Source: Massilia litorea (GTDB lineage Bacteria; Pseudomonadota; Gammaproteobacteria; Burkholderiales; Burkholderiaceae_D). Taken from it: a stretch of DNA of 64,000 nucleotides. The notes below the pieces were generated by a model. That model had not been told where the DNA came from and did not search any database. It was given only the letters and a program-made list of their open reading frames with translations. Shown piece by piece: positions 30,680 to 40,054 of this stretch. Every line of letters starts with the position of its first letter. Position 1 is the stretch's first letter. Position numbers and translations under genes: made by a program. Location of the stretch: the NCBI RefSeq assembly GCF_015101885.1, contig NZ_CP062941.1, positions 4,898,001 through 4,962,000 on the forward strand. The letters are read 5' to 3'.

Positions 30680-31381
30680 TCAGGCGCCCGAAGCGGTAGC
30701 GGGCGGAGGTGGTGGCGGTTCGTCCGGTTCGGCCGGCTCCTGTGCCGGTTCCACCGGCGGCGCTTCGGTCGGCGGCGGTTCAGTTGGCGGCGTTTCAGGT
30801 GATGAGGCGGGCGGCGGGTCGGCCGGCGATGGCGGCGGCACCGGGGTCAACGGCGGCACCGGCGCCGGCGGCGGTTTCACCGGTGCCGGCGGCGGCGGAG
30901 GTACGGGGACGCCCTGCCCCGCCGTAAACTTCCACTCCGACAGATGCTCCTTGTTCTCGAAACCCTGGAAACGCGCGTCGAAGTTCGCCACTTTCAGCGG
31001 CTGCGCCTGCGACAGGCTGTAAATCGCCAGCACCCCGACCTTGTCGCCCTGGTACTGGATGCCCCACTCGGTGCCGCCCGTCACCGGGTCCACGAAGATC
31101 TTGCGCAGGTGGCGCCGGGTGCCGGGAAAGCGCGGATCCTTCAATAAGTCGTGCAGGGCCGGCGGCACCGGGTTGGACCCCTGGGGCGTGGCGGCGGCAT
31201 AGCTGCGCAGGGCCGCGCTGAAGGCGGCGCCGATCTCGAGCAGCTCCTGCTCGGCGGCCGCGCGCCGCAACAGGCCGTCGACCTCCAGCGTCGCCGCACC
31301 GACCATCCCAAGGATCGCGACGAACACCACCAGCCCGACATAGGTGAAGCCGGCCTCGCGATGAACGGGTTTCGCTACCAT
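30680..31381 (-). CDS. Atypical pseudopilin with proline-rich tail
   Basis: 233 residues. A short leader MVAKPVHREAG is followed by FTYVGLVVFVAILGMVGAA, a type III prepilin signal and hydrophobic helix. The usual glutamate at mature position 5 is a glycine. This is otherwise known mainly for GspK-type tip pseudopilins, though the protein is too short to be GspK. A globular part (about 35-160) carries a DPVTGGTEWGIQYQGDKVGV segment of the GspG/H kind. The last 75 residues are almost wholly proline, alanine, glutamate and threonine. Last gene of the secretion operon, overlapping the previous gene by 7 bp. Probably a minor pseudopilin; tail function unknown. Confidence 0.75.
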   Translation of the reverse strand: MVAKPVHREAGFTYVGLVVFVAILGMVGAATLEVDGLLRRAAAEQELLEIGAAFSAALRSYAAATPQGSNPVPPALHDLLKDPRFPGTRRHLRKIFVDPVTGGTEWGIQYQGDKVGVLAIYSLSQAQPLKVANFDARFQGFENKEHLSEWKFTAGQGVPVPPPPPAPVKPPPAPVPPLTPVPPPSPADPPPASSPETPPTEPPPTEAPPVEPAQEPAEPDEPPPPPPATASGA

Positions 31382-31761
31382 TCGGCGTAGGGGCGGCCGT
31401 CGCGGCCGTTCCCCGGCGCGCCGCTGTGGATGTTGTAGACGGCGCCCGGCGTACCCTCTTCTTCCGGCGGCGTGACGATCCAGCCGCTGTCGCTTTCCAG
31501 GATCGGATCCATCGGCAGGCGCGCCAGGTATTTTTTCTCGACCAGCTGCTCGAGCGAATCCGGATAGCGTCCGGTATCGGAATGAAACTGATCGATCACC
31601 GCGCGCGTGCTGCGCAGGTTATCCATCAGGATGGTTTCCTTTGCACTGTCCACGCTCGGGAAGAAGCGCGGTACGGCCAGCGTCAGCAGCAGCGCGACGA
31701 TGGCCAGCACGACCAGCAGTTCGATCAGGGTGAAGCCGTTTCTGGAGCGTGGGGTTCGCAT
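31375..31761 (-). CDS. GspG-like pseudopilin
   Basis: 128-residue pseudopilin. The leader MRTPRSRNG ends in the processing glycine, followed by [20 protein letters not shown] with Glu5 intact. The C-terminal part has the GspG-like pattern YPDSLEQLVEKKYLARLPMDPI and a glycine-rich end, without the calcium-site sequence of true GspG. The ATG at 31761 was preferred to an upstream GTG because it directly follows the preceding gene's stop. Placed in the secretion operon with two other pseudopilins. Confidence 0.85.
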   Translation of the reverse strand: MRTPRSRNGFTLIELLVVLAIVALLLTLAVPRFFPSVDSAKETILMDNLRSTRAVIDQFHSDTGRYPDSLEQLVEKKYLARLPMDPILESDSGWIVTPPEEEGTPGAVYNIHSGAPGNGRDGRPYAEW

Positions 31762-31763
31762 CG

Positions 31764-32279
31764 TCACCACCGCCGGTAAGGTATGCCGCTCAGGCCGACG
31801 CGGGTCGACGTCGAATACACGTCGTAGACATCGTCGCCCTCCTTCGGTTCTTCCGCTTCGCTGGCGTAGCTGCGCTTGCCCCAGGTCTGGGCGTCGCCCA
31901 GTCCGGGATCGGGATTGAACGGGTCGCGCGGCAGGCGGCGCAGGAAGTAGATCTTCGCGCCCTTGGGACTGCGCAGGTCGCGCACGCCGTCGACCAGCAG
32001 CTCGAGCTTTTCCGGATAGCCGCTGGCACCGGCCGCTTTCGCGATGCGGCCTTCGTCGGCGGCGCGTTTATAGGCGTCGAGCGCGCCGCGGATCTCGCGC
32101 AGGGACTGGCGCAGGACCTGTTCGTTGCGGCGCTGGACGACCGTCTGGCCGACCGGGATGACCAGGGTGGCCAGCAGGGCCAGGATGGCGAGGGTGACGA
32201 GGAGTTCGATCAGGGTGAAGCCGCGCAGCCCGGCGCGTGGACGCGGGCGTGCGTTGAACACCTGTGCGGCGAGATTCAT
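31764..32279 (-). CDS. GspG-like pseudopilin
   Basis: 171-residue pseudopilin. A 20-residue leader ends in RG, then [20 protein letters not shown] with Glu5 present. The body has [21 protein letters not shown] and [10 protein letters not shown], the GspG-type loop. The start ATG overlaps the secretin stop by 4 bp. Likely a minor subunit of the same fibre as the main GspG. Confidence 0.87.
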
Positions 32280-38389: not shown

Positions 38390-39576
38390 CAAGACATATC
38401 TCCGGCCAGGTCGAAGATCGGCATGTACAGCAGCACCACGATCGCGCCGACCACGAGGCCGATGGCCGCCATCAACAGCGGCTCGAAGGTGCGCGTGAAG
38501 CGGTCGATCCAGCGGCTGATTTCGCCGTCGTAAAAGGCCGCCGATTGGGTCAGCATCGGGCCCATGTCGCCGGTGCGCTCGCCGACCCGCAGCATGCGCA
38601 GCGAGATCGGCGTGGTGAGGCCATTCGTTTCGAAGGCATCCGACAGGGGCCGCCCCGATTCGATGGCGGCGCGCGCATTCGCGAGCGCGGTCCGCAAGGT
38701 ATTCGACACCATCGGCTGCACCGTCTCGATCGCGCTCACGATCGTGATCCCGCCTTCGGTCAGCATGCCGAGCGTGAGATAGAGGCGCGACAGTTCGTAG
38801 ATGCGGGCGCGCTCGCCGATGCCGGGCAGGCGCCCCACCAGGCGCGCGATGCCGCCGCTGCGCAGCAGGCGCCGCACCCCACCGACGGCCAGCGCCAGCA
38901 GCGCGATTGCGCACAGCAGGATCGCGCTGCCGTGATTCGACGCGAATTGCCCCCATTCGAGCAGGAGTTGGCTCATCCACGGCAGGTTGCGCCCTGCTCC
39001 CTGGTAGACCTCGGCGAAACGCGGCACCACGTAGCCGATCAGGAAGCTGGAGACGCCGCCGCCCACGCACAGCAGGATCACCGGATAGATCGAGGCGCTG
39101 ACGATTTTCGAGCGCACGGTATCGATGCGCTGCTGGTAGTCGATGTAGCGCGAGAGCGCGCGCGGCAGGTCGCTGGTGCCTTCGGCGGCGCGCACGATGC
39201 CGACATACAGCGGCGGGAACAGGGCCGGCTGGGCGGCCAGCACGCTGGAGAAGCGCTGGCCCTCGCGCAGGCCGGCCAGCAGGCGTTCGAGCACGCCGCG
39301 CGCGGCCGGATTGGCTTCCTTTTCCAGCAGGGCCTCCAGGCCTTCGACGATGCCGAGTCCCGCGCTCAGCAAGGCCAGCAATTCCTGGCTGAACAGGACG
39401 AGCGAGAGTTTCGGTCCGCGCGCGCGCGCCAGGCGCACGCCGCCGCTGGGCTCGACCGCGCTGACGAACAGGCCGCGCGCCTCGGCCTGGCGGCGCGCGT
39501 CGGCTTCGTCGAGCGCGTCGACCAGGATGTGCGAGATCGACAGGTCGGGCGCGAGGGTGCGAACTGCAAACTGCAT
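38389..39576 (-). CDS. gspF: GspF inner-membrane platform protein
   Basis: 395-residue polytopic protein with two T2SSF domains (about 65-190 and 265-385) and three main membrane helices (about 165, 215 and 370). Motifs include FSQELLALLSAGLGIVEGLE and the second-repeat MLRVGERTGDMGPML. The start MQFAVRTLAPD was chosen as the family-like beginning; a longer frame adds low-quality sequence. Follows gspG by 34 bp. Confidence 0.94.
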   Translation of the reverse strand: MQFAVRTLAPDLSISHILVDALDEADARRQAEARGLFVSAVEPSGGVRLARARGPKLSLVLFSQELLALLSAGLGIVEGLEALLEKEANPAARGVLERLLAGLREGQRFSSVLAAQPALFPPLYVGIVRAAEGTSDLPRALSRYIDYQQRIDTVRSKIVSASIYPVILLCVGGGVSSFLIGYVVPRFAEVYQGAGRNLPWMSQLLLEWGQFASNHGSAILLCAIALLALAVGGVRRLLRSGGIARLVGRLPGIGERARIYELSRLYLTLGMLTEGGITIVSAIETVQPMVSNTLRTALANARAAIESGRPLSDAFETNGLTTPISLRMLRVGERTGDMGPMLTQSAAFYDGEISRWIDRFTRTFEPLLMAAIGLVVGAIVVLLYMPIFDLAGDMS

Positions 39577-39610
39577 GAAGACGTGCCCGGGTAGGAAAAT
39601 AGTCGGAGGA

Positions 39611-40054
39611 TCAGAGCGAGGAAATATCGGCGTTGTCGCCGGCGCCGCCGGGCTGGCCGTCACGGCCGAACGACACGATCTCGTATTCTCCCTTCGCGGC
39701 GGGCGAACGGTATTGATATGGGTGTCCCCATGGGTCGGGCGGTACGCCTTTTTTCAGGTAGGGACCATTCCACTTGGCGCCGGCGCTCGCGGGCGCCGTC
39801 ATCAGGGCGGCCAGGCCCTCTTCGCCGCTCGGGTAGCGTCCGACGTCGAGCCGATAGGTGTCGAGCGACTTTTCGAAGGCCTCGATTTGCGCCTTGGCGA
39901 TCGTCACTTCCGACTTGCCGAGCTGGGAAAAATACTTGGGACCGACATAGGCCGCGAGCAGGCCGATGATAACGATAACGACCAGCAGTTCAAGCAGCGT
40001 AAAACCACCCGCGCGCGTACGCGGCGACCGGGCATTGCGGGTTACGACATTCAT
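39611..40054 (-). CDS. gspG: GspG, main pseudopilin
   Basis: 147-residue major pseudopilin, first gene of the operon. The leader of 17 residues ends GG, followed by FTLLELLVVIVIIGLLAAYV with Glu5. The body has the full GspG pattern: LDVGRYPSGEEGLAALM, WNGPYLKKGVPPDPWGHPYQY and a C-terminal EYEIVSFGRDGQPGG with the calcium-loop aspartate and glycines. This is the best-conserved piece of the system and defines it as type II-like. Confidence 0.95.
   Translation of the reverse strand: MNVVTRNARSPRTRAGGFTLLELLVVIVIIGLLAAYVGPKYFSQLGKSEVTIAKAQIEAFEKSLDTYRLDVGRYPSGEEGLAALMTAPASAGAKWNGPYLKKGVPPDPWGHPYQYRSPAAKGEYEIVSFGRDGQPGGAGDNADISSL

What the first reader, a model, noticed from the sequence alone, without database searches (positions are those of the whole stretch)
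30680..40054. Eleven-gene hybrid type II/type IV-pilus-like system with PilM/N/O/P parts
One tightly overlapped leftward operon encodes GspG, GspF, GspE, then PilM-, PilN-, PilO- and PilP-like proteins, a TPR-fronted secretin lipoprotein and three more pseudopilin-like proteins. Classical type II operons use GspL, GspM, GspC and GspH-K; here those are replaced or missing, and no prepilin peptidase is present. The order is neither a standard gsp nor a pil nor an msh operon. It may belong to the poorly described secretion systems of betaproteobacteria and deltaproteobacteria that pair GspG with PilN/O-like proteins. Its cargo is unknown.
Basis: partly seen in the sequence, partly recalled or inferred. 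Interest (0 to 1): 0.7.

Follow-up and report, generated by a model that had tools for sequence, protein, structure and literature searches.

The report
Unorthodox type II-like secretion operon
Eleven tightly packed genes encode what looks like a protein-export machine related to, but on a separate branch from, the classical type II secretion system; some relatives lie beside genes for large extracellular enzymes, which makes its likely cargo testable.

Summary
Eleven intact minus-strand genes (30680-40054; nine of ten junctions overlap or lie within 2 nt) encode GspG, GspF, GspE, a PilM-position protein, PilN, a PilO/GspM-like and a PilP-like protein, a lipoprotein secretin and three minor pseudopilins. 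The full order recurs in 74 of 102 related loci, a contiguous part in 20. The kind is already in print: Cupriavidus metallidurans CH34 has it, and Ralstonia papers describe an 'unorthodox T2SS' that fits. Added here: it is one family; its third minor pseudopilin lacks Glu5 like GspK (0 of 77 readable); 35 of 102 secretins carry a C-terminal cohesin domain, not the window's; nine of ten chosen upstream neighbours are recognisable, mostly extracellular enzymes, in the window an ExeM/NucH nuclease. Best reading: a T2SS-like exporter dedicated to its neighbour. Secretion is inferred; the PilM label lacks sequence support.

The parts
39611..40054 (-). GspG, major pseudopilin (147 aa), prepilin motif GFTLLELLV
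   Evidence: TIGR01710 171.8 bits, above cut-off 88.85; PF08334 2e-41
38389..39576 (-). GspF-like inner-membrane platform protein (395 aa)
   Evidence: PF00482 7e-48; TIGR02120 247.1 bits, below cut-off 424
36710..38389 (-). GspE/PilB-like assembly ATPase (559 aa) with MshEN domain and two CxxC motifs near the C-terminus
   Evidence: PF00437 5.7e-121, MshEN 6e-9; family one clade, 100/100
35905..36717 (-). Protein in the PilM / cytoplasmic-GspL position (270 aa); homology not shown
   Evidence: 0 families for the window protein; six unrelated families (best E 0.0012), none PilM or GspL, among 35 members; no PDB hit to E 10; collinear but not significant alignment to PilM, E 0.058
35354..35908 (-). 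PilN-like protein (184 aa)
   Evidence: PF05137 1.1e-5; 21 of 26 members match PF05137 at E 0.1
34791..35357 (-). PilO / GspM-like protein (188 aa)
   Evidence: 0 families for the window protein; 7 of 29 members match T2SSM_b (best 2.6e-5), 3 T2SSM, 2 PilO; profile comparison best with GspM
34246..34794 (-). PilP-like protein (182 aa): N-terminal hydrophobic segment, Pro-rich linker, C-terminal domain
   Evidence: no PilP or GspC match in 34 members; profile comparison PilP prob 30.5 vs GspC 2.1
32276..34246 (-). Secretin lipoprotein with TPR-like N-terminal region and Pro-rich C-terminal tail (656 aa)
   Evidence: PF00263 3.5e-34, Secretin_N, STN; TPR under cut-off; family one clade, SH-aLRT 100, quick tree
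31764..32279 (-). Minor pseudopilin 1 (171 aa), keeps Glu5
   Evidence: PF07963 over cut-off; GFTLIELLV in the sequence
31375..31761 (-). Minor pseudopilin 2 (128 aa from the ATG), keeps Glu5
   Evidence: PF07963 over cut-off; GFTLIELLV in the sequence
30680..31381 (-). Minor pseudopilin 3 (233 aa), GspK-like in lacking Glu5 (GFTYVGLVV), Pro-rich tail
   Evidence: no NCBIfam hit; sequence; 0 of 77 readable copies have Glu5
41450..44458 (-). Candidate cargo: ExeM/NucH-family extracellular endonuclease (1002 aa), upstream, same strand
   Evidence: NF033681 567.3 bits vs cut-off 300; its cluster is present in 19 of 103 loci, the window included
40848..41438 (-). NF038129-family PEP-CTERM protein (196 aa), possible second partner
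   Evidence: NF038129 182.1 bits vs cut-off 65; its cluster in 17 of 103 loci, the window included

Best explanation
The eleven genes build a secretion machine of the type IV filament superfamily that works like a T2SS but is its own lineage. Proposed mechanism: a prepilin peptidase encoded elsewhere (most likely the one near pilB) matures the four pseudopilins. The GspE ATPase, held by the PilM-position/PilN/PilO inner-membrane platform and GspF, assembles a short GspG pseudopilus tipped by the three minor pseudopilins, the last without Glu5 like GspK. The membrane-anchored PilP-like protein docks the platform to the lipoprotein secretin, whose TPR-like N-terminal region (and, in 35 of 102 relatives, a C-terminal cohesin domain) may bind cargo or the envelope. 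A folded periplasmic protein encoded next door, in this genome most likely the ExeM/NucH nuclease, is pushed out through the secretin. Shown here: gene content, conserved order, separate clades, pseudopilin motifs, and extracellular-type neighbours at some loci. Inferred: all interactions, secretion itself and the identity of the cargo.
For: GspG is a T2SS major pseudopilin by curated cut-off. Full order in 74 of 102 loci; three relatives (L048, L049, L060) hold a permuted version of the set. ATPase family one clade: 29 rows at SH-aLRT 100 (quick), 25 rows at 100/100 (careful); secretin family one clade: 29 rows at 100 (quick only). Family-profile scores do not overlap: ATPase minimum 658.8 in 95 family loci vs maximum 519.2 in 74 other loci, secretin minimum 552.0 in 102 vs maximum 157.5 in 49 (profiles were built from family members, and some of the other loci hold the same gene twice). 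Minor pseudopilin 3 has no Glu5 in 77 of 77 readable copies. Upstream same-strand proteins: ExeM nuclease (window), S8 subtilase (L086, L149), M4 metallopeptidase (L154), GH64 with F5/8C and Ig (L143), GH2-type with Ig and F5/8C (L131), Fn3/Ig (L155), RHS (L147), PAP2 (L144), none recognised in L092. The GH64 domain lies beside the system in two Paraburkholderia and two Nitrospirillum loci; the Nitrospirillum machine (an alphaproteobacterium) branches among betaproteobacterial ones, close to Paraburkholderia, so machine and neighbour may have moved together. The Aliiroseovarius plasmid version has an A24 peptidase gene directly before its gspF. 32 of 35 system-positive genomes also hold a classical GspE, so it is usually an addition, not a replacement.
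Against: No experiment. No census or background rate of such neighbours was made; the ten scanned were chosen mainly for size. Signal peptides were not tested, and RHS and PAP2 proteins need not be secreted. A second set of ten neighbours gave two regulators, two PEP-CTERM proteins (one just under cut-off), a DsbC-like protein, a transglycosylase, a YhcG nuclease and three without a family. The regulator clusters are in 16 (OmpR type) and 10 (LuxR type) of 103 loci, mostly upstream. In the window two small genes lie between gspG and the nuclease, and ExeM could leave by the classical T2SS of the same genome. PilM and PilP position proteins have no significant homology to their namesakes. Co-occurrence with classical GspE is not significant as an association (Fisher p 0.06).
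Confidence: 0.64

Rival explanations
1. It is a surface pilus or adhesin-assembly machine of T4P type rather than a protein exporter: GspG polymers extend outside the cell and the neighbours are unrelated.
For: The M-N-O-P-secretin order is that of T4aP loci (read by position and size), and the ATPase has an MshEN domain.
Against: The major subunit is a GspG above cut-off. No second ATPase gene lies in the operon. ATPase and secretin lie outside the sampled PilB/PilQ clades. Extracellular enzymes are neighbours at several loci.
Confidence: 0.15
2. It is a diverged second T2SS that exports the same substrates as the classical one; the neighbours are chance.
For: 32 of 35 positive genomes also have a classical GspE; no background rate for neighbours was measured.
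Against: Clades are separate and not nested in T2SS. No gene matches GspL or GspC well. G038 has two copies and no classical GspE at the threshold used.
Confidence: 0.13
3. The operon displays proteins at the surface, for example PEP-CTERM or RHS proteins, instead of releasing soluble enzymes.
For: PEP-CTERM-type clusters are in 17, 20 and 16 of 103 loci (the representative of the second scores just under the Pfam cut-off). RHS genes lie near several copies. 35 of 102 secretins carry a cohesin domain.
Against: PEP-CTERM proteins are usually handled by exosortase and are common in these genera (both recalled). Dockerins do not track the cohesin: 6 of 14 cohesin-bearing and 4 of 8 other genomes have one.
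Confidence: 0.08

Closest known systems
'Unorthodox T2SS' of Ralstonia solanacearum (Li et al. 2016, PMC5080846; PMC6428702; passages read)
   Same: Two clusters of seven core genes each; for one, four hypothetical genes between gspE and gspD are mentioned. Printed spans of about 9.96 and 9.33 kb resemble the 9.375 kb here. One lies next to rhsB.
   Different: Ralstonia sequences were not compared here. The wording leaves open whether the four genes are meant for all strains or one. No phylogeny and no identity for the four genes in the passages read.
Second gsp cluster of Cupriavidus metallidurans CH34, Rmet_4704-4713 (PMC2864759, 2010; passages read)
   Same: Locus L152 of that replicon holds all eleven genes in the same order, and its ATPase and secretin fall in the family clades.
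   Different: Secretin 39.8% identical. The record had no gene table, so that L152 is the printed cluster is inferred from replicon and content. Described there as gspD, gspEFG, two more gspG and four hypothetical genes.
Geobacter Pul/OxpG 'atypical T2SS' required for OmpB secretion (Mehta et al. 2006, seen only as cited in PMC3543383 and PMC6013743)
   Same: Pseudopilins PulG, OxpG and TklG; a PulQ and a PulE are named; OmpB has an Fn3 domain.
   Different: No sequence could be obtained; relationship, gene order and PilM-P content are untested.
Classical T2SS (gsp)
   Same: GspG, GspF-, GspE- and secretin-type proteins, minor pseudopilins including one without Glu5.
   Different: ATPase and secretin outside the T2SS clades; no one-piece GspL; no GspC match; minor pilins 1 and 2 below the GspH, I, J cut-offs.
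T4aP pilMNOPQ and MSH pilus
   Same: M-N-O-P-secretin order by position; MshEN domain on the ATPase.
   Different: ATPase and secretin outside both sampled clades; GspG major subunit; no PilT-like gene in the operon.

Membership tests
Classical T2SS (gsp) | GspG major pseudopilin | tested here: met
   TIGR01710 171.8 bits over cut-off 88.85
Classical T2SS (gsp) | GspE ATPase inside the T2SS clade and over the GspE cut-off | tested here: not met
   494.1 vs 630.25 bits; separate clade 100/100. One reference over the cut-off (L173) also falls outside the main GspE group
Classical T2SS (gsp) | GspD secretin inside the T2SS clade and over the cut-off | tested here: not met
   138.4 vs 351.35 bits; separate clade (quick tree)
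Classical T2SS (gsp) | One-piece GspL plus GspM and GspC | tested here: not met
   Two genes in the GspL place; gene 6 leans to GspM (T2SSM_b in 7 of 29; prob 76); gene 7 leans to PilP, not GspC (30.5 vs 2.1). Accepted homologue pairs also scored low, so the method is weak
Classical T2SS (gsp) | GspK-type tip pseudopilin without Glu5 | tested here: met
   0 of 77 readable third minor pseudopilins have Glu5; 18 of 95 unreadable. That GspK lacks Glu5 is recalled; E. coli GspK shows it (sequence start)
Classical T2SS (gsp) | Secretes folded proteins | not testable with these tools
   needs a mutant exoproteome
T4aP | PilB and PilQ clade membership | tested here: not met
   473.7 vs 675.65 and 152.9 vs 284.35 bits
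T4aP | PilM homologue | tested here: inconclusive
   no PilM match in 35 members, no PDB hit, profile E 0.058 over 218 columns, while the PilM-GspL control gives 0.16
T4aP | Retraction ATPase PilT with the system | tested here: not met
   none among the operon genes; PilT elsewhere in the genome not examined
MSH pilus | MshE and MshL clade membership | tested here: not met
   MshL 92.4 vs 250.2 bits. MshE was labelled by an MshL hit nearby, two of those hits under cut-off, and the label needed two groups in the ATPase trees
Unorthodox T2SS (Ralstonia/Cupriavidus) | Seven gsp-type genes plus four other genes between gspE and the secretin gene | tested here: met
   window layout against the text of PMC5080846, whose wording is not fully clear
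Unorthodox T2SS (Ralstonia/Cupriavidus) | Same clade as the C. metallidurans CH34 cluster | tested here: met
   L152 inside the family in the trees
Unorthodox T2SS (Ralstonia/Cupriavidus) | Same clade as the Ralstonia clusters | not tested
   no Ralstonia sequence was fetched by name
Geobacter Pul/OxpG system | Same clade as PulE/PulQ | not tested
   the one genome-contig scan kept 80 loci, none from Geobacter

The most novel reading that the evidence does not exclude
A separate class of type IV filament machine, not a T2SS variant, that travels between bacteria as a cassette with its own dedicated cargo gene, so that one conserved exporter is coupled to proteases, glucanases, nucleases or RHS proteins in different hosts, with a cohesin domain on many secretins serving as a cargo or envelope dock.
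Probability: 0.32. Interest if true: 0.72.

Novelty: new member of a known kind. Interest (0 to 1): 0.47.

Why it matters
In the passages read, the kind is printed only as gene lists, and a major paper on the superfamily does not mention Geobacter, betaproteobacteria, deltaproteobacteria or Oxp in its main text. Showing one clade with a fixed eleven-gene plan, present in 35 of 97 sampled genomes of the window's family (own genome included), turns scattered 'hypothetical' genes into one testable system. The neighbours give concrete candidate substrates, and the different platform proteins offer a test of which parts of a T2SS-like machine recognise cargo.

Tried and rejected
Rejected: that the operon is a standard gsp, pil or msh locus. 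Not supported: a cohesin-dockerin cargo code. A cohesin-like domain was found at the secretin C-terminus in 35 of 102 relatives by a home-made profile built from 8 of them, and in three further family loci outside that set (L042, L043, L069); Pfam's cohesin passed its cut-off in 5 of 10 secretins scanned. But dockerins occur in 6 of 14 cohesin-bearing and 4 of 8 other genomes. The window secretin has no cohesin.

Weak lead not relied on: Ig-like modules are shared between otherwise unrelated neighbours (M4, GH64, GH2-type, S8; BLAST E about 1e-3 to 1e-18; GH64 and GH2-type neighbours also share F5/8C domains), but such modules are common in secreted proteins (recalled). The last 112 residues of the window nuclease matched 18 ORFs, all at the upstream end of related loci; not each was checked to be ExeM.

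Technical: the first profile comparison ran in a wrong mode and was redone. The first order count used wrong domain positions and was redone. The gene caller misread parts of this GC-rich DNA, the operon itself included, so neighbour clusters were described only where a family search backed a representative. Pseudopilins 2 and 3 share one profile and were told apart by position. In one search a few pattern matches are chance (for example one each in pilins 1 and 2).

Trees: long branches flagged were HofB, one own ATPase (L005) and the family member L153, and an own secretin (L020), L153 and one MshL. The careful ATPase tree holds 60 of 71 rows: HofB, L005, four family rows and five reference rows were left out. 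No careful secretin tree was made. References are from the window's own class plus E. coli K-12. Reference labels come from curated cut-offs (GspE, PilB, PilQ) or from position (GspD, MshE, GspL, GspM, GspC, PilM-P); 'Tad' for two own secretins is my inference. The phylum sample found 8 positives in 398 genomes at E 1e-60, own genome included, all in the window's order; this does not exclude distant relatives, and the alphaproteobacterial plasmid version (29% identity) shows that such exist.

Papers: search listings (30 and 99 empty); PMC6668835 outline, one section and passages; PMC3543383, PMC2864759, PMC6428702, PMC5080846 and PMC6013743 passages only. No experimental study of a betaproteobacterial member was seen in these; most subscription papers are not held.
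Full report
What is there. The window lies in a 5.35 Mb genome. On the minus strand eleven genes run from gspG (40054) to a third minor pseudopilin (30680), with junctions of -8 to +2 nt apart from one 34-nt gap; with the starts chosen all have ATG and no internal stop, and the last gene directly abuts the convergent murJ. A consensus promoter scan gave one site on the operon strand, inside the start of gspG (39993-39966; 2 sites in all vs 0.6 in shuffles), which is not evidence of function.

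Domain identity. GspG passes its curated cut-off; GspE, GspF and the secretin match the superfamily strongly but fall below the NCBIfam equivalog cut-offs shown. PilN is supported in the window and in 21 of 26 members. The PilO-position protein has no match in the window; T2SSM_b matches 7, T2SSM 3 and PilO 2 of 29 members. No PilM or GspL match appeared in 35 PilM-position members, and no PilP or GspC match in 34 PilP-position members. Profile-profile comparison with small reference sets (7 to 12 sequences) from T4aP and T2SS loci gave: PilN with PilN prob 80 and GspM 83; PilO with GspM 76, PilO 31, GspL 23; PilP with PilP 30.5 and GspC 2.1; PilM with PilM 0.9, GspL 1.0 and GspM 2.0, none significant. 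The control pairs PilM-GspL (0.4), PilO-GspM (1.3), PilP-GspC (1.2) and PilN-GspL (7.7), accepted homologues (recalled), were no better, so the method is weak here.

Conservation. The secretin is found at E <= 1e-40 in 35 of 97 sampled genomes of the same family and, by profile at 1e-60, in 8 of 398 of the phylum, all in the same order; both counts include the own genome. Of 102 loci annotated, 74 show the complete order, 20 a contiguous part (many at contig ends), and 8 are permuted, or have a gene moved, split or not detected. The secretin matches 27 of 72,556 plasmid records at E <= 1e-20, among them a Burkholderia ambifaria plasmid typed conjugative whose annotation shows the eleven-gene layout.

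Phylogeny. ATPase: 71 rows, quick tree, family of 29 on one side of a branch with SH-aLRT 100; 60 rows, careful tree, family of 25 at 100/100, PilB one clade at 100/100, T2SS and MSH labels each needing two groups. Secretin: 68 rows, quick tree only, family of 29 at 100, with GspD, PilQ, MshL and two own sequences taken as Tad each apart.

Pseudopilins. Where the cleavage motif was readable, GspG has Glu5 in 82 of 82, pilin 1 in 63 of 64, pilin 2 in 89 of 90 and pilin 3 in 0 of 77; motifs were unreadable in 5, 36, 9 and 18 loci. E. coli GspK also lacks Glu5 (its start is seen). This points to a T2SS-like tip with pilin 3 in the GspK place.

Neighbours. Clustering of flanking ORFs over 103 loci: murJ downstream in 49, an ExeM-type cluster upstream in 19, a PEP-CTERM cluster upstream in 17. 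Scans of ten upstream proteins, chosen mainly for size, gave recognisable domains in nine: ExeM/NucH nuclease; S8 subtilase twice; M4 metallopeptidase; GH64 with F5/8C and Ig; GH2-type with Ig and F5/8C; Fn3/Ig; RHS; PAP2; one had none. RefSeq annotation shows RHS, FG-GAP or IPT/TIG proteins at further plasmid loci. The GH64 domain occurs at the two Nitrospirillum and two Paraburkholderia loci and in no other locus of the set indexed; their machines are close in the trees. Against this, a second set of ten neighbours gave regulators, PEP-CTERM proteins, a DsbC-like protein, a transglycosylase, a YhcG nuclease and three without families; signal peptides were not tested and no background rate was measured.

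Co-occurrence. 32 of 35 positive genomes and 46 of 62 negative ones hold a classical GspE (Fisher p 0.06). The three positives without one are G038, G087 (68% complete) and G091.

Prior knowledge. The 2010 C. metallidurans genome paper printed a smaller gsp cluster with gspD, gspEFG, two extra gspG and four hypothetical genes; the matching locus on that replicon is a family member. Li et al. 2016 describe two unorthodox T2SS in Ralstonia of seven core genes, mentioning four hypothetical genes between gspE and gspD for one, and a later paper notes an adjacent rhsB. The Geobacter Pul/OxpG system, required for OmpB secretion, has three named pseudopilins and a PulQ and PulE, but could not be compared by sequence.

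Verdict. A real, conserved, T2SS-like machine on its own branch; a member of a kind already in print under the name unorthodox T2SS and not found characterised in the papers seen. Best explanation: a dedicated exporter of the protein encoded beside it (0.64, lowered from 0.66 on checking, because the neighbour proteins were chosen and their signal peptides untested; the novel case went from 0.33 to 0.32 and interest from 0.48 to 0.47 for the same reason). What is new is the delimitation of the family, the tip-pilin and cohesin details and the cargo candidates, not the existence of the cluster.

Noticed in passing
G000 C1:1294369-1303843 (loci L003, L011, L020): A further ATPase and, 8 kb on, a secretin in the window's own genome. 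The ATPase falls in none of the main sampled clades; the secretin is a long branch.
   Followed up: partly
G000 C1:2370295-2371446 (L005, L013): A PilB-like ATPase on a long branch; none of the seven secretins found lies near it.
   Followed up: no
L213, L215, L218: ATPases next to MshL-type secretins that do not group with the other MshE sequences, although their secretins do group with the other MshL.
   Followed up: no
L120, L142, L122, L131, L155 and 30 others, secretin C-terminus: Cohesin-like domain fused to the secretin, absent from the window's own; dockerins do not co-occur with it.
   Followed up: partly
L266, 3535-10951 and 22310 onward: FG-GAP plus RHS gene pairs upstream of the permuted system on a Janthinobacterium lividum plasmid and again downstream.
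   Followed up: no
L153: Alphaproteobacterial plasmid version with an A24 peptidase gene before gspF and gspG near the operon's end.
   Followed up: partly
L135: The Azospirillum sp. B4 copy has its pilO-like gene in two pieces.
   Followed up: no
window 40187-40615: Small protein (143 aa) with a lipoprotein-like start between gspG and the PEP-CTERM gene; no NCBIfam match; its cluster in 5 of 103 loci.
   Followed up: no
L263: The system on a Burkholderia ambifaria plasmid typed conjugative, near RHS, IPT/TIG, cytochrome c peroxidase and transglycosylase genes.
   Followed up: no
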